DNA of 64,000 bases from Aliiglaciecola lipolytica (GTDB taxonomy: Bacteria > Pseudomonadota > Gammaproteobacteria > Enterobacterales > Alteromonadaceae). The DNA lies in NCBI RefSeq assembly GCF_018860635.1, contig NZ_JAHKPT010000025.1, positions 167,867 to 231,866 on the forward strand. Direction: 5' to 3'. Of this stretch, positions 3,003 through 54,467 are shown in pieces; within the stretch, counting starts at the first letter, position 1, and each line of letters opens with the position of its first letter. Both the position numbers and the translations under genes were made by a program. The notes under the pieces are model-generated. The model had not been told where the DNA came from and ran no database searches. It saw only the letters and a list, made by a program, of their open reading frames with translations.

Positions 3003-3296
3003 ATGAAAACCCTTTGGTTCAATATATTGCTGATGTCGTGGGTAGCTAGTTTTAGCTTCTCATCAGTAGCATTTGAGAATCAACAAGGTGCAGTCGACCA
3101 ATCCAGTTCAATAGTAGAACAGGCGCAAATATTTAGTCTTGATCCTTTAGACTTTGATTTCGATGCGACCTTAAATTCATTCACTTCATCTTCAAGCCTA
3201 GTCAGCTATGCCCCCTTCGCTTATCAGCAAAATGCAGCTTTTATTGTATTCAAAAATGCTGACTTTATACGCGGTCCGCCCTCTATATCCATCTGA
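3003..3296 (+). CDS. Small putative secreted protein, unknown function
   Basis: A 97-residue frame starting at ATG 3003 (an in-frame TTG lies one codon earlier). MKTLWFNILLMSWVASFSF and SSVAFEN give a plausible signal peptide cleaved near residue 24. The mature part is about 70 residues, rich in Ser, Phe and Asp, without cysteines and without recognisable motifs. The ribosome binding site is poor (AGTAAGAAT). It lies upstream of the CBS-domain gene in the same direction, separated by about 155 bases. Lineage-specific; no function can be assigned. Confidence 0.5.
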   Translation: MKTLWFNILLMSWVASFSFSSVAFENQQGAVDQSSSIVEQAQIFSLDPLDFDFDATLNSFTSSSSLVSYAPFAYQQNAAFIVFKNADFIRGPPSISI

Positions 3297-5731: not shown

Positions 5732-7240
5732 ATGTGGATATACGAAATGAATAGCATGAACCGACCATGGATAGACAGCGCTAACAAGGTTGTGACTTTT
5801 GTTTTACCAATACTATTACTGATCAGCTTCGCCATCGCTCCCATTTATGGAACTTGGCTTGAAGCGGCTGTGGTAGGCATTCCTGCCGTTATTATTCCAC
5901 TACTTTTGATCAATAAAAACGCGCAAGCCGAAATTACTCAGCACGTAGTTGCTGTCAGCTTTATGTTGTTTTCAGCTTTGCATATTCAGCAGATGCACGG
6001 CGCGATTGAAATTCACTTTGGCATATTTGTGTTGATGTCGTTTTTAGCTTTTTATCAAAATTGGCGTATTTTTATTACCGCAATTATTGTCGTTGCAGTG
6101 CACCATTTAGGCTTTTTCTTTTTACAGCAGGATGGTGCGCCCCTATATGTGCTGTTAGATGGTGAACTACTTTTCACCTTACTATTAGTGCATTTTGCTT
6201 ATGCTATTGCGCAAGGTGTGATTTTAGCCTGGATGAGTAAAAAGAACGCAGTTAACACCCAAGCTGCCCATGAATTGTTAAAAAGTGTTGGCGGCATTGC
6301 CACAGGTGACGGCAAATTTAATCTGACTTATCGCTCTAACCCCAATTCTAAAAGCCAATCAGTCATTGCCTTTAATCAATTAATTCAATCCTTTGAAATT
6401 ATTGTCAATGAAGTGGAGATGCTCGGGGAAAAAATAGACAAAAATGCGAGTTCCACCAAAGCTGCTTCAAATGAACTACAAGAATTTAAACCAATCGCAA
6501 ACTCCGAAATATCCGCTATTGCGAATGCTTCTGAGCAGCTATCGGATTCTGCCACAAGCATATCGGATTTAGCCATAGAAACCTATAATCGCGCTAGTGA
6601 TGCCAGACAGGATACCGAAAAAGCGCAAACGGAGATGACGAACGCAAATACCGAAGTGAGCAAATTAGTTGAGAACATTTCAAAGACCAGTAAAAGTATT
6701 GAAGACTTGGCCAATGAGTGCGATAGCATTTCTAGTGTTTTAGAAACCATACAATCTATAGCAGACCAAACTAACCTACTAGCACTAAATGCCGCGATTG
6801 AGGCGGCCAGAGCGGGTGAGCAAGGACGCGGATTTGCAGTAGTTGCCGATGAAGTTCGTCAATTAGCTTCGAGAACAAAAACCAGTACCGAAGAAGTCAA
6901 TGAAATCATGGCAAGACTGCTGTCATCTTCCAAACAGTCTAGTTTATTTATGCAGGAATGTATGACTTTAGGAAACACCACCAGTAAACAAGCTGATTCA
7001 GCGCTTAATTTAATGCAAAGCGTACAATCAAATATCGAACACGTTGATGAGGTGACTAATGGTTTGAAGAGCGCGGTGGAAAACCAAACCAATGTGATTA
7101 ACAATATCGCCAACTCTGTGGGGCAATTGGATTCAATTAGTCAGAAAGAGTCCGCATTAGTGCAATCTGTTTCCAATGAAACTCAACAGTTAGAGCTCAT
7201 ATCAAGCAAATTAATGCAAAGTCTTAGTAAATTCAGATGA
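5732..7240 (+). CDS. Methyl-accepting chemotaxis protein with polytopic membrane sensor
   Basis: A 502-residue receptor. Residues 15-175 form about six membrane helices with almost no periplasmic domain, unlike the usual two-helix receptor. After that comes a long coiled-coil signalling domain with the hairpin tip [20 protein letters not shown] and [18 protein letters not shown], the site that docks CheA and CheW. No NWETF-type CheR tether is seen at the C terminus. The sensor may respond to a membrane-associated or internal signal. Start taken at the first ATG (5732); an ATG five codons later is possible, neither with a good ribosome site. The next gene begins 9 bases after the stop. Confidence 0.93.
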
Positions 7241-27529: not shown

Positions 27530-29182
27530 ATGAAAAATTTACTTGTACTGCTTGTCTGTTTCCTTAGCTTTTTTACACATGCTAAACCAACAATGGTAGG
27601 CAATGTTAAAGGATATACCCTCAATAATGATGGAGCGATGATCCAGTTTTCTCATATAGTCTTTGAAAACGGCAAAGTGATTTCCATCGGCGATCAAACC
27701 TTAATGAATCAATATCCAGATAGTGTATTTATTGATGGCCGCCAAAAAACCCTTTTACCGGGCTTAATTGATGCGCACGGGCATTTATTATACCTTGGCT
27801 ACTCATTGCTAGAAGTTGACTTACGCGATGTGCAATCTGCACAACTGTCAGCCTCTAAGGTAGGCGAATATGCAGCAGCAAACTCACATTTAGAGTGGAT
27901 AATAGGCGGCGGATGGAATCAAGTATTGTGGCCAGACAAACAATTTCCCAAAGCACAACTGCTTGACGAATATGTGAATGAAACCCCTGTTATTTTAAGT
28001 CGAGTGGATGGTCATGCCGTTTGGGTTAACAGTAAAGCAATGCAAATCGCGGGCATAGACAAAGACACTTTGGATCCGCCAGGTGGCAAGATCATTCGAG
28101 ATGAACAAGGAAATCCATCAGGTGTATTAATAGATACGGCGATGGATTTACTATCGGAACATCTACCAGAAGAAAGTAACGACAGCATTGAAGCTAGCTT
28201 AGAAGCCGCTTCACAGCACTTACTTTCAGTGGGTATAACCAATGTGCATGACGCTGGAATAAGCAAATCAGAATATGATTTTTTTAAACAAAAAGCCTTA
28301 GCAGAAAGTTTAGCTGTGCGTATTTATGCAATGTTCTGGTTTGAAGATCCCAGTTTACAGGAAGTACTCGAGGCGGGTTATTTTAATGATCCCGACGATT
28401 TTTTATCGATTAGAAGTGTCAAAGCCATGGCCGATGGAGCCCTAGGTAGTCGTGGAGCAGCTTTGTTCGAAGACTATTCAGATGCAGCTGACAATAAGGG
28501 GCTGATGGTCATGCAGGAAGCACAATTTAAACCCCTTTTTGATTTGGTACTCAAGCACAAATTTCAACTCAATGTGCACGCTATTGGTGATCTCGCTAAT
28601 CACTTAGCCTTAAATCAATTTGAAGCCTCATTCAAAACCGTTGGCGGTAAAGAGCTGCGCAATAGAGTGGAACATGCTCAAGTTATCAGCTTGAATGATA
28701 TCCCACGCTTTAAACAACTAGACATCATTCCCTCCATGCAACCTACCCATGCCACCAGCGATATGAACATGGCTGAAGACCGTTTAGGAAAAGACCGTTT
28801 ACGTGGTGCATACGCTTGGAAACGCTTCATTGATCAGGGCTCACCATTGCCGCTAGGTTCAGATTTTCCAGTTGAATTAGCTAATCCATTTTATGGCATT
28901 CACGCAGCTGTCACCCGTCAGGATAGAAACAACCAACCTGTCGAAGGTTGGATTCCTAGTCAAGCTTTAAGTCTCCAACAAGCTTTTAAAGGCTTTACCA
29001 TAGATGCAGCCTATGCCGCTCATCAAGAAAAAGTGTTAGGTGGATTAACTAAAGGTAAATGGGCTGACTTCATTTTGATAGATCAGGATATCTTCGAAAT
29101 TGATAAGAAAGAACTTTGGAAAACTAACGTAGTGGAAACTTGGGTTGCTGGTAAACGCGTATATGAGAATAGTAAAGAATAA
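27530..29182 (+). CDS. Exported amidohydrolase, YtcJ-like
   Basis: 550 residues with signal peptide MKNLLVLLVCFLSFFTHA. The TIM-barrel metal site begins with GLIDAHGHLLYLG (HxH after a beta strand); other landmarks are ADGALGSRGAAL, NVHAIGDLAN, EHAQVI and LGSDFPVE with the metal Asp. The YtcJ/NfdA branch hydrolyses amide bonds; substrate not predictable. TaaaatAAGAGG precedes the ATG. It is the last gene of a two-gene unit with the dehydratase-like enzyme. A nearby hairpin (29195-29232) lacks a U run on this strand and is better explained as the end of a minus-strand RNA. Confidence 0.85.
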   Translation: MKNLLVLLVCFLSFFTHAKPTMVGNVKGYTLNNDGAMIQFSHIVFENGKVISIGDQTLMNQYPDSVFIDGRQKTLLPGLIDAHGHLLYLGYSLLEVDLRDVQSAQLSASKVGEYAAANSHLEWIIGGGWNQVLWPDKQFPKAQLLDEYVNETPVILSRVDGHAVWVNSKAMQIAGIDKDTLDPPGGKIIRDEQGNPSGVLIDTAMDLLSEHLPEESNDSIEASLEAASQHLLSVGITNVHDAGISKSEYDFFKQKALAESLAVRIYAMFWFEDPSLQEVLEAGYFNDPDDFLSIRSVKAMADGALGSRGAALFEDYSDAADNKGLMVMQEAQFKPLFDLVLKHKFQLNVHAIGDLANHLALNQFEASFKTVGGKELRNRVEHAQVISLNDIPRFKQLDIIPSMQPTHATSDMNMAEDRLGKDRLRGAYAWKRFIDQGSPLPLGSDFPVELANPFYGIHAAVTRQDRNNQPVEGWIPSQALSLQQAFKGFTIDAAYAAHQEKVLGGLTKGKWADFILIDQDIFEIDKKELWKTNVVETWVAGKRVYENSKE

Positions 29183-29189
29183 TAGAAGG

Positions 29190-29232
29190 AAAAAACCCGC
29201 ACAAACCACAGGACACGAAAATTTGTGCGGGT
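29190..29232 (-). terminator. Intrinsic terminator, minus strand
   Basis: On the minus strand ACCCGCACAAA (from 29232) pairs with TTTGTGCGGGT (to 29195), 11 bp, then six T. On the plus strand the hairpin is not followed by T, so the orientation is clear. The nearest minus-strand gene stop is 29728, about 500 bases away. Confidence 0.85.
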
Positions 29233-29348
29233 AGTATTGCCTTCCTGCCTCAAACAACTTAGCTAGCGTTTGAAGTATTTCAACATTGTTTATTATTTTT
29301 ATTATCAATGGTTACACATATAACTTTTCTATCGTAGATGCGTAATCA
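29190..29348 (-). ncRNA. Predicted sigma-54-dependent small regulatory RNA
   Basis: The RNA would start about 29348, 12 bases after the -12 element, and end in the U run near 29190, giving about 160 nucleotides. It can form: an AAC(C)AUUG / CAAUGUU stem around an A-rich loop of AUA/AAA repeats suited to Hfq's distal face; a CUUCAAAC / GUUUGAGG 8-bp stem (29275-29268 with 29255-29248); and an 11-bp terminator stem followed by six U. No ORF with a ribosome site lies inside. Neither Qrr, GlmY nor any other family I know fits. Everything here is prediction from motifs; the promoter match is the strongest part. Confidence 0.55.
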
Positions 29349-29358
29349 AAGCTTACTT

Positions 29359-29375
29359 AGCAGCTTCAGTGCCAA
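29359..29375 (-). promoter_or_regulatory. Sigma-54 promoter (-24/-12)
   Basis: Minus-strand TTGGCACTGAAGCTGCT has GG at -25/-24 and GC at -13/-12, exactly ten bases apart, with the full TTGGCAC -24 box and TGCT at -12 (consensus TTGCT). It faces the predicted small RNA. Confidence 0.65.
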
Positions 29376-29437
29376 CTTTTTTATCTATAAAAATCAACAG
29401 CTTAATATTTTCACATTAGTGTCTTTTGACGCACATC

Positions 29438-29453
29438 ATACCAGTTTGGTGCA
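29438..29453. promoter_or_regulatory. NtrC-like enhancer site
   Basis: Minus strand TGCACCAAACTGGTAT. One half matches GCACC perfectly, the other gives GGTAT, spaced by five bases as in GCACC-N5-GGTGC. Its centre is about 97 bases upstream of the inferred start of the RNA, a normal enhancer distance. Confidence 0.5.
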
Positions 29454-29727
29454 TTAGCACTTTATTAGGGCGTACCGTTCAAACGAGTGCCTATTTTATG
29501 CGCATATATTTTCACTTTTTCGCCCTCATATAATTGTTCATTATTTGTACATGCGCTTGATTGCTATGGGAAATTTTGTACTCAGAGTTGACTGCGAGGG
29601 TAAAATTAAATAGTTACTTTAGATTTGAAAACGAATGTTTTGCATGGCGGCGTTGATTGATTTTGTTTTCAACCCCCAAACTTGCGTTGTTTTAACCTGA
29701 TTAGTGCTGATTATTTCAATCTGTTAT
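29454..29727. other. Rest of the intergenic region
   Basis: About 270 AT-rich bases between the NtrC-like site and the stop of the GNAT gene. No gene or further strong dyad seen, apart from a short palindrome ATGCGCAT near 29499. Confidence 0.5.
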
Positions 29728-30213
29728 TTAGTCTTTAATTAAATAGTCACACTTAGCCATCTCAGGTGTTATAGATTCCGGATAATTTACTCGCCGGAAA
29801 CCCAAAGATTGATACAGCTTCTTAGCGACTTTATTATGAGGCCATACAAATAACGAAAAGCCCTTAGTTACTAGGTATTCGGGGGCTTGAGTCAGTAGTT
29901 GCTTAACGAGTTGCTTACCAACACCACAGCCTCTGTTCTGAGGATTGACAACCAAACGGGCTAAGTGACACCTTCCAAGTCGTTCATAACACTGCCCAAA
30001 AGCGAGCATGTTGTTTTTGGTATCTATTAGCTTATAACTCCTTCCCTGCGCTAATTTAGTTTCTACAATTAGACTGCGGGAGCTAATGGGGAAGGAGATG
30101 TTAGGTCCCCCCCAATCACGAATTTCATCAAAACTGACAAACCACCCACAAAGGCTAGCTATATCCTGTTCGGAGGCCTCGACTAAAATTAACGGTAAAG
30201 TGTTCTTATCCAT
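29728..30213 (-). CDS. GNAT family N-acetyltransferase
   Basis: 161 residues. The acetyl-CoA loop is LARLVVNPQNRGCGVGKQLVKQ (R/Q-x2-G-x-G/A) and the C-terminal KLYQSLGFRRV is the standard last motif. The start overlaps the end of the upstream MBL gene by 25 bases, indicating translational coupling. Acceptor unknown. Confidence 0.85.
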   Translation of the reverse strand: MDKNTLPLILVEASEQDIASLCGWFVSFDEIRDWGGPNISFPISSRSLIVETKLAQGRSYKLIDTKNNMLAFGQCYERLGRCHLARLVVNPQNRGCGVGKQLVKQLLTQAPEYLVTKGFSLFVWPHNKVAKKLYQSLGFRRVNYPESITPEMAKCDYLIKD

Positions 30214-54053: not shown

Positions 54054-54179
54054 ATACCTGTCTTATTATTCTATTTGTACGATATTAAACGTTTTTTTAG
54101 CAAATAACGCTAGGGCACAAGGACAAAGATTGCTATATTTTGGCTATATAATAGATTCGGTTTTTCACTCCAAGTTACG

Positions 54180-54310
54180 CACAGGGTAGTTTTATTTCCT
54201 GCGCTTCAGTGAAAACAAAATGGGAATTTGGTGTAAATCCAAAACTGTACCCGCAACTGTAATTAATTGGCATTCTTGCCGATTGAGAGTCAGATACCAG
54301 CCGCATCTTT
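54180..54310 (+). promoter_or_regulatory. Cobalamin (AdoCbl) riboswitch
   Basis: Consensus pieces in order: AAAATGGGAA (54217-54226), TTGGTGTAAATCC, AAAACTGTACCCGCAACTGTAA and the B12 box GAGTCAGATACCAGCC (about 54287-54303). It lies just upstream of btuD and would switch off the operon when B12 is plentiful. The exact 5' end is approximate; no terminator hairpin is obvious downstream, so translation control is possible. Confidence 0.92.
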
Positions 54311-54467
54311 ACTTATACCTTTTTTCTAGCGTGCGGGAATACACGATCGACTTGCATAATCATTTCGTTGCGATTTCCCTAAATACCAATAATTTTAAAC
54401 ATCGAATAGGTTGTTACATCGCTTAACATCCCTTCGATAAAACAAAATGGGAAAGACTGTCACACCA

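What the first reader, a model, noticed from the sequence alone, without database searches (positions are those of the whole stretch)
29190..29453. Predicted NtrC/sigma-54-controlled small RNA with its own terminator
On the minus strand an NtrC-like dyad, a -24/-12 promoter with exact GG-N10-GC spacing, about 160 nucleotides with two internal stem-loops and an A-rich loop, and an 11-bp terminator with six U follow in the correct order and distance. No ORF uses them: the nearest minus-strand gene ends about 275 bases before the site. Sigma-54 control of small RNAs is known for Qrr, GlmY, CrcZ and NrsZ; this one does not look like those. I read it as an undescribed nitrogen- or sigma-54-responsive RNA of this lineage.
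Basis: partly seen in the sequence, partly recalled or inferred. Interest (0 to 1): 0.78.

Follow-up and report, generated by a model that had tools for sequence, protein, structure and literature searches.

The report
Stand-alone RNA descended from nitrate-gene leader
A short, self-terminating RNA gene with the kind of promoter bacteria use under nitrogen shortage appears to have split off from the control region of nitrate-uptake genes in a family of marine bacteria and to have been kept on its own, but what it acts on is unknown.

Summary
On the minus strand of what is probably an Aliiglaciecola genome, an NtrC-type upstream site, an exact sigma-54 promoter (29375-29360), about 159 nt of RNA and a strong terminator (29231-29190) lie in order, with no gene downstream. 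Singly, promoter and dyad are at chance level in the window; the composite occurs twice in the 5.03-Mb genome, the other time in the leader of the nitrate transporter gene nrtA.
The element belongs to a family found, in the searches made, only in Alteromonadaceae. In many relatives it is the leader of nrtA or narK and carries an A1/G4 hexaloop hairpin (P2) of the kind ANTAR antiterminators such as NasT bind (22 of 22 loci). In the window's lineage, and in a recC-adjacent copy of Alteromonas and allied genera, it stands alone; there P2 is lost (0 of 34), while promoter, covarying terminator and a near-invariant terminator loop (GUGUCCUG) are kept. Rfam has no match.
Best reading: an NtrC/sigma-54-driven sRNA born from a NasT-type nitrate leader, probably acting in trans through its terminator loop. 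A relic is the main rival. No transcript, activator or target has been shown.

The parts
29440..29460 (-). Upstream activating site GTGCTAATGCACCAAACTGGT: GTGC-N4-GCAC followed by an NtrC-type half site GCACCA-N3-TGGT
   Evidence: Located; GTGC-N4..6-GCAC lies 85-100 bases upstream of the promoter in 47 of the 57 distinct elements that have a promoter match; 94%, 83%, 53% identical in G003, G001, G005. That this is an NtrC-type sequence is recalled knowledge.
29360..29375 (-). Sigma-54 (-24/-12) promoter TTGGCACTGAAGCTGC, GG-N10-GC
   Evidence: 95%, 95%, 85% identical in three orphan relatives; promoter pattern found in 57 of 63 distinct elements
29190..29348 (-). Predicted RNA, about 159 nt; start inferred about 12 bases downstream of the -12 GC, end at the U run
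   Evidence: Coordinates; transcript not observed
29310..29347 (-). 5' hairpin GAUUACGCAU...AUGUGUAACC
   Evidence: same fold in G000 and G003, similar in G001; not more stable than shuffles
29289..29305 (-). A-rich single strand with AAN repeats, a possible Hfq distal-face site
   Evidence: Read; Hfq role is inference
29248..29275 (-). Hairpin CUUCAAAC...GUUUGAGG
   Evidence: Folds; no statistical support on its own
29230..29241 (-). Degenerate remnant of the ANTAR P2 hairpin (GGC AAUACU ACC; cis leaders have GGC AnnGnn GCC)
   Evidence: P2 present in 22 of 22 nrtA/narK leader loci, absent here
29190..29231 (-). Intrinsic terminator CCCGCACAAA...UUUGUGCGGG-UUUUUU
   Evidence: z -5.37; changes on both sides in 7 of 12 pairs and 7 of 13 pairs
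29209..29221 (-). Terminator loop region UUUUCGUGUCCUG; its GUGUCCUG is in 61 of 63 distinct elements
27530..29182 (+). Convergent amidohydrolase gene (Amidohydro_3) whose 3' end faces the terminator
29728..30213 (-). Upstream GNAT acetyltransferase gene; its stop is 275 bases before position 29453

Best explanation
It is an autonomous small-RNA gene derived from the leader (attenuator) of a nitrate-transport operon. Phosphorylated NtrC, made active by nitrogen shortage, would bind the upstream site and drive sigma-54 polymerase from 29375-29360; transcription would stop at the built-in terminator at 29190 and release an RNA of about 159 nt. In related genomes the homologous element is the 5' leader of nrtA or narK, where NasT (a response regulator with an RNA-binding ANTAR domain, released by nitrate) is expected to bind the P2 hairpin that overlaps the terminator and let polymerase into the operon. 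The window copy has no gene behind it and has lost P2, so it should terminate regardless of nitrate. What it keeps, and shares with nearly all other copies, is the promoter, the terminator and the terminator loop; the likeliest function is therefore in trans, by pairing of the loop GUGUCCUG with a target RNA. Shown by computation: architecture, homology, conservation, covariation, loss of P2. Inferred from known families: NtrC, sigma-54 and NasT roles. Guess: trans action through the loop; no target found.
For: The composite upstream-site-plus-promoter pattern hits, in G000, only this element and the nrtA leader; over 9 genomes it gives 14 hits, 12 of them in elements of this family (one before a porin-like gene in G004) and 2 elsewhere; reversed control 0. 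Elements of the family directly precede nrtA or narK beside nasT, nasS, nirB and nitrate reductase genes. In Aliiglaciecola G004 and G007 the element with GNAT and MBL genes upstream is followed by nrtA; in G000, G190, G001, G003 and G005 it is followed by the amidohydrolase 3' end instead. P2 with A1/G4: 22 of 22 nrtA/narK leader loci against 0 of 4 orphans of this genus and 0 of 30 recC-adjacent orphans; on distinct sequences 19 of 19 against 0 of 42. Orphan identity to G003, G001, G005: promoter 95, 95, 85%; terminator 100, 98, 80%; RNA 5' part 96, 86, 55%; against 80, 72, 64% for the adjacent coding end and 52, 40, 27% for the upstream spacer. Terminator stem covaries. The recC-locus orphan is a heavily covarying RNA: 26 of 46 pairs with changes on both sides, 96.5% of cells paired, 31 sequences. 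ntrC (756.5 bits, over cut-off) lies beside glnA, ntrB and the nitrate cluster.
Against: No transcript data for this genome. The 5' half of the window RNA is not stable beyond shuffles, and in G005 that half (55%) and the upstream site (53%) are less conserved than the adjacent coding end (64%). No conserved antisense target: complements of the loop gave only unrelated or non-shared sites, at numbers like or below the reversed controls. NtrC is inferred from half sites; the perfect GCAC-N7-GTGC dyad seen in 15 of 19 distinct cis leaders is in none of the 42 distinct orphans. A matching P1 hexaloop is found in only part of the cis leaders, and one presumed porin leader (L148) has an imperfect P2, so NasT control of the leaders is itself inferred. 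Six of 37 distinct recC-locus elements lack a promoter by my pattern.
Confidence: 0.68

Rival explanations
1. A non-functional relic: the leader of an nrtABC operon that was lost or moved from this place, still transcribed perhaps, but without a job.
For: Same synteny with nrtA downstream in G004 and G007; P2 already decayed; 5' part and upstream site diverge in G005; G007 itself has what looks like a decayed leader after nasS (L139).
Against: Promoter and terminator are more conserved than the neighbouring coding end in all three comparisons; the terminator stem in G005 changed by compensation while the loop stayed; a stand-alone form is also kept at the recC locus in 37 distinct sequences, with strong covariation.
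Confidence: 0.2
2. A NasT decoy: the stand-alone RNA soaks up the ANTAR protein NasT, like EutX/Rli55 for EutV.
For: Homology to ANTAR-type leaders; a decoy of this kind is known in ethanolamine systems (PMC5821096, passage read).
Against: The dual A1/G4 hexaloop motif that defines the binding site (PMC3369931, passages read) is absent in all 34 orphan loci tested; P2 is exactly what was lost.
Confidence: 0.05
3. A cis-acting device for the convergent amidohydrolase gene: its transcription or occasional read-through makes antisense RNA against the 3' end of that gene.
For: The U run ends at 29190, 8 bases from the last base of the convergent gene at 29182.
Against: The terminator loop and promoter are conserved at unrelated places (before nrtA, narK, moaA, recC); a strong terminator limits antisense.
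Confidence: 0.05
4. A sigma-54 sRNA as described, but driven by another enhancer-binding protein than NtrC.
For: GTGC-N4..6-GCAC is not the textbook NtrC dyad (recalled), and the perfect dyad is missing in the orphans; several other sigma-54 activators are encoded in the genome.
Against: Perfect GCAC-N7-GTGC dyads stand at this site in 15 of 19 distinct cis leaders; the same dyad stands before ntrB in this genome; the genes controlled are nitrogen genes.
Confidence: 0.12

Closest known systems
NasS-NasT / NasR (ANTAR) antitermination leaders of nitrate-assimilation operons
   Same: Homologous elements directly precede nrtA and narK beside nasT and nasS; P2 hexaloop A1/G4 overlaps the terminator
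   Different: The window element has no downstream gene and no P2
EutX / Rli55 ANTAR-sequestering sRNAs
   Same: Stand-alone RNA related to ANTAR leader RNAs
   Different: No ANTAR site left; no riboswitch seen; sigma-54 promoter
5'-UTR-derived sRNAs such as Vsr217 (malK) and Rli51 (mpl)
   Same: Short RNA made from a gene leader, acting also in trans in those cases (abstracts read)
   Different: Here the RNA became a separate gene, with sigma-54 promoter; no target known
NrsZ, CrcZ, GlmY, Qrr (sigma-54-dependent sRNAs; recalled)
   Same: Sigma-54 promoter and enhancer-type upstream site before an sRNA
   Different: No Rfam match at gathering score to any of 4227 families; unrelated sequence and origin
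Aln1a-c sRNAs of Alteromonas macleodii
   Same: Intergenic sRNAs of Alteromonadaceae
   Different: Aln1 come from three starts in one 404-bp region and carry CsrA sites (PMC5864184, passages read)

Membership tests
Sigma-54-dependent sRNA (general kind) | -24/-12 promoter with GG-N10-GC | tested here: met
   29375-29360; conserved
Sigma-54-dependent sRNA (general kind) | Upstream activator site and activator gene in the genome | tested here: met
   Composite pattern; ntrC over cut-off; binding itself not testable
Sigma-54-dependent sRNA (general kind) | Observed rpoN-dependent transcript | not testable with these tools
   No RNA data for this genome; rpoN itself was not searched for
ANTAR (NasT) target leader | P2 hairpin with hexaloop A1/G4 overlapping the terminator | tested here: not met
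   Window: GGC AAUACU ACC; 0 of 4 orphans, 22 of 22 nrtA/narK leader loci
ANTAR (NasT) target leader | P1 hairpin with hexaloop A1/G4 | tested here: not met
   None found upstream in the window element
ANTAR (NasT) target leader | Regulated gene downstream | tested here: not met
   Only the convergent amidohydrolase lies beyond the terminator
EutX/Rli55-like ANTAR decoy | Intact dual-hairpin ANTAR site on a stand-alone RNA | tested here: not met
Known Rfam sRNA families (Qrr, GlmY, CrcZ and others) | Covariance-model match at gathering score | tested here: not met
   Window scan: only a cobalamin riboswitch elsewhere; relatives: nothing reaching gathering score (5 loci, 5 loci)

The most novel reading that the evidence does not exclude
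The short transcript itself is the regulator throughout this clade. A nitrogen-starvation RNA whose working part is the terminator loop is made either as the terminated leader of a nitrate-transport operon, so that NasT and nitrate switch one promoter between making sRNA and making mRNA, or as a gene of its own where the operon has gone (Aliiglaciecola window locus; recC locus of Alteromonas and allied genera). The function would be tied to the loop and not to the place.
Probability: 0.35. Interest if true: 0.8.

Novelty: new variant of a known kind. Interest (0 to 1): 0.62.

Why it matters
It gives a concrete case, with intermediates in living relatives, of how a small RNA gene can arise: an operon leader keeps its promoter, terminator and loop, loses its antitermination site and its operon, and is retained as a separate gene. 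It also adds a nitrogen-regulated RNA (regulation inferred) to Alteromonadaceae, a family of marine heterotrophs, and makes the function of a conserved terminator loop directly testable. In ten searches of the open-access paper library (at most 20 rows listed each) no listed title or abstract start describes it; most subscription papers are not in that library, and the supplementary sRNA table of the Alteromonas Te101 transcriptome could not be read.

Tried and rejected
Chance co-occurrence: rejected by conservation in relatives and by the whole-genome composite pattern. Of 72 stretches matching a short terminator pattern in named genomes, 41 have a strict sigma-54 promoter within 300 bases, and all 41 have a stem of 12-13 pairs; 5 more (L075, L094, L096, L104, L117) have a 13-pair stem but no strict promoter or too little upstream DNA; of the other 26, 24 have stems of 9 pairs or fewer, two (L071, L120) 12 and 11, and none has such a promoter.

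NasT decoy: rejected because P2 and P1 are missing in the orphans tested.

Intramolecular pairing of the conserved loop with the RNA's own 5' part: no better than shuffles in any group.

Antisense targets: the 11-mer CAGGACACGAA in 15 genomes gave 21 sites, 12 of them the elements themselves; the other 9 compare with 28 in the reversed control. They lie in other genes, among them cysN (G000, G003) and prfC (G030, G128, G002), named by me from the translations. CAGGACAC near an ATG gave 10 sites in G000 and 12 in G030 (one of them the element) against 8 and 9 in the reversed control, with no gene shared by inspection of the translations; a panC-like start in G000 has the site over its ribosome-binding region but is not seen in G030.

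Rfam: a sub-threshold CyaR match (28.8 bits, cut-off 47) to a relative was not followed. Phage origin: no match to the terminator pattern in viral contigs. Published Alteromonas ncRNAs: AltRNa2 (309 nt, table of PMC4223743, section 9 read) could not be placed and is too long; not equated.

Detection caveats: one search reports no P2 for the moaA leader L043 because its pattern starts early, with another method, finds GGC AAUGCU GCC there. L148, a presumed leader of a porin gene, has GGC AAUGUC ACC, loop kept but stem imperfect; it is not in the 22. L151 was dropped because its terminator did not match the pattern. Searches used stricter filters, so genome counts may miss weak members; some of their weakest hits are chance (for example L162).

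Full report
What was checked. The minus strand of 29190-29460 holds, in order, an upstream site GTGCTAATGCACCAAACTGGT (29460-29440), a -24/-12 promoter TTGGCACTGAAGCTGC (29375-29360), an RNA predicted to start near 29348, and a terminator ending in six U (29231-29190). The GNAT gene upstream ends at 29728; beyond the terminator lies only the convergent amidohydrolase gene (27530-29182, plus strand). The terminator hairpin is highly non-random (z -5.37). The promoter pattern and the dyad taken alone are at chance level in the window. Rfam gives nothing here at gathering score; its only hit in the window is a cobalamin riboswitch elsewhere.

Where it comes from. The window lies in a 5.03-Mb genome, contig C4. 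The window genome is therefore taken to be Aliiglaciecola; this is inference.

Conservation at the same place. Of the 7 other same-genus genomes in a search of 60, the DNA query found the element over most of its length in 4 (G003, G001, G004, G007) and its 3' end in the other 3 (G002, G005, G006). In the lineages where it stands beside the amidohydrolase gene, identity to G003, G001 and G005 is 95, 95, 85% in the promoter, 94, 83, 53% in the upstream site, 96, 86, 55% in the 5' part of the RNA and 100, 98, 80% in the terminator, against 80, 72, 64% in the coding end of the amidohydrolase gene and 52, 40, 27% in the upstream spacer. Promoter and terminator beat the coding end in all three comparisons; upstream site and 5' part beat it in two of three. 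In G003 the amidohydrolase gene is there but no GNAT gene was found in the stretch held.

A wider family. A covariance model of the 3' end (10 sequences, 9 distinct; 7 of 12 pairs with changes on both sides, all cells paired) finds matches at E up to 0.01 in 54 of 295 Alteromonadaceae genomes, 13 of 52 genera; the weakest of these may be chance. In a sample of the order, 13 of 394 genomes match at E up to 0.001, 11 of them in this family. The two outside the family lack promoter and loop (L160, L161), as does one weak hit inside it (L162). A plain terminator pattern in the one-genome-per-species collection gives 72 stretches. Of these, 41 have a strict sigma-54 promoter upstream and a stem of 12-13 pairs; they are Alteromonas, Aliiglaciecola, Paraglaciecola, Aestuariibacter, Marisediminitalea or unnamed Alteromonadaceae records plus one unnamed gammaproteobacterial bin. 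Five more have the stem but no strict promoter or too little upstream DNA. The other 26 are taken as chance: none has the promoter and 24 have stems of 9 pairs or fewer.

The link to nitrate assimilation. Two further copies in the window's genome lie at C8:7256-7309 and C8:19938-19990. They sit between a sigma-54-type promoter and narK and nrtA respectively; the promoter before narK (TTGGATTGATTATTGC) is off consensus. The cluster also holds a PP2C-kinase fusion, nirB, a nitrate-reductase-like gene, nasT (response regulator plus ANTAR domain, E 3e-19), nasS and nrtB, followed by an nrtC-like gene, a porin, glnA, ntrB and ntrC. In Paraglaciecola and several Aliiglaciecola genomes the copy with the GUGUCCUG loop is itself the leader of nrtA or narK. 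In Aliiglaciecola G004 and G007 it has GNAT and MBL genes upstream, as in the window, and nrtA downstream. The composite upstream-site-plus-promoter pattern occurs in G000 only at the window element and the nrtA leader. Over 9 genomes it gives 14 hits: 12 in elements of this family, including one before a porin-like gene in G004, and 2 elsewhere (G004:C29, G097:C1); the reversed pattern gives none.

The ANTAR test. ANTAR proteins bind two small hairpins with six-base loops having A at position 1 and G at position 4, upstream of a terminator (PMC3369931, passages read); NasT binds the nasA leader in Paracoccus (PMC3795266, passages read). A P2 hairpin GGC-AnnGnn-GCC whose 3' arm runs into the terminator is present in 22 of 22 cis leader loci with the conserved loop (13 nrtA, 9 narK; three elements appear twice under different records), in the moaA leader of Aestuariibacter salexigens, and in both leaders of the window's genome. 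It is absent in 4 of 4 orphans beside the amidohydrolase gene (one, G001, keeps the stem but not G4) and in 30 of 30 recC-adjacent orphans. On distinct sequences the count is 19 of 19 against 0 of 42. Of 13 further, weaker hits viewed, six have P2 with another terminator loop, among them nirB leaders of two Alteromonas genomes; the presumed porin leader L148 keeps the loop but not the full stem. P1 is less clear: a hexaloop with A or G first and G fourth, 31 bases upstream of the terminator, occurs in 8 of 13 nrtA loci and in the nrtA leader of the window's genome; such a loop at 21 bases occurs in 2 of 9 narK loci (one element under two records). The orphan has thus lost the antitermination site while keeping promoter, terminator and loop.

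A second orphan. In Alteromonas, Salinimonas, Marisediminitalea and others the element lies between a dUTPase gene and recC; in Ae. salexigens moaA and mobA still lie between element and recC. Of 37 distinct recC-locus sequences 31 have the promoter, 28 the upstream site pattern, 36 the exact loop, none P2. Thirty-one of them fold into a common structure in which 26 of 46 pairs show changes on both sides and 96.5% of cells pair; the slid controls reach at most 41.7%. Related sequences can inflate such counts, but the size of the effect is strong evidence that the stand-alone form is a working RNA there. Its 5' half is not visibly related to the window's; only the 3' end, promoter and upstream site are shared, so the window orphan borrows only part of this support.

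Mechanism and its limits. Shown: architecture, homology, selective retention, covariation, loss of P2. Inferred: NtrC and sigma-54 control, from sequence and gene neighbourhood; the consensus of NtrC sites is recalled, and the best internal support is GCAC-N7-GTGC in 15 of 19 distinct cis leaders, though in 0 of 42 orphans, and before ntrB. Inferred: NasT antitermination of the leaders. Guess: trans action through GUGUCCUG. No target emerged and no internal partner for the loop. A relic still transcribed is the main rival.

Comparison with the known. Leader-derived RNAs that act in trans are known: Vsr217 from malK and Rli51 from mpl (abstracts read). A stand-alone ANTAR RNA is known in EutX/Rli55 (PMC5821096, passage read), but as a decoy with intact site. 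Sigma-54-driven sRNAs (Qrr, GlmY, CrcZ, NrsZ) are recalled; no Rfam family matches. I therefore file this as a new variant: a sigma-54-type sRNA gene descended from a NasT-type leader. RNA-seq in Alteromonas macleodii Te101 reported 127 chromosomal sRNAs (PMC5864184, passages read); whether the recC-locus RNA is among them could not be checked.

Noticed in passing
window 54167-54319 (+): Cobalamin riboswitch, Rfam RF00174, 55 bits.
   Followed up: no
L074, L066, L086 and the other recC-locus elements (37 distinct sequences), between dUTPase and recC genes: A conserved, heavily covarying sigma-54-type RNA of Alteromonas and allied genera with a nearly invariant apical stretch GCCAGGCAA and the loop GUGUCCUG; no Rfam match in the 5 loci scanned.
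   Followed up: partly
L139 (G007:C1:2046500-2058500), hit near 6025: After nasT-nasS, a leader-like element with P2 but a changed terminator loop and no nrtA hit downstream in the stretch; probably a leader left behind when nrtA moved.
   Followed up: no
L136 5852-7579 (+): A PP2C phosphatase-Ser/Thr kinase fusion between narK and nirB in the nitrate cluster, with homologs beside narK in Paraglaciecola loci.
   Followed up: no
window 29286-29263 (-): A seven-codon reading frame (ATG...TAG) inside the RNA, read by eye; similar short frames seem present in G003 and G001 but not in G005 (alignment). No ribosome-binding site seen.
   Followed up: no
L147 (G221), elements at 3276 and 9003: Both nitrate leaders of one genome carry the GUGUCCUG loop, while several other genomes carry it in one leader and a different loop in the other.
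   Followed up: no
L148 3345-4547 (+), L231 1009-2247 (+) and L177 (G004:C27): Outer-membrane Alginate_exp-family porins linked to nitrate genes; in G122 one follows a leader of this family, and in G004 a similar-looking gene follows an element with upstream site, promoter and terminator.
   Followed up: partly
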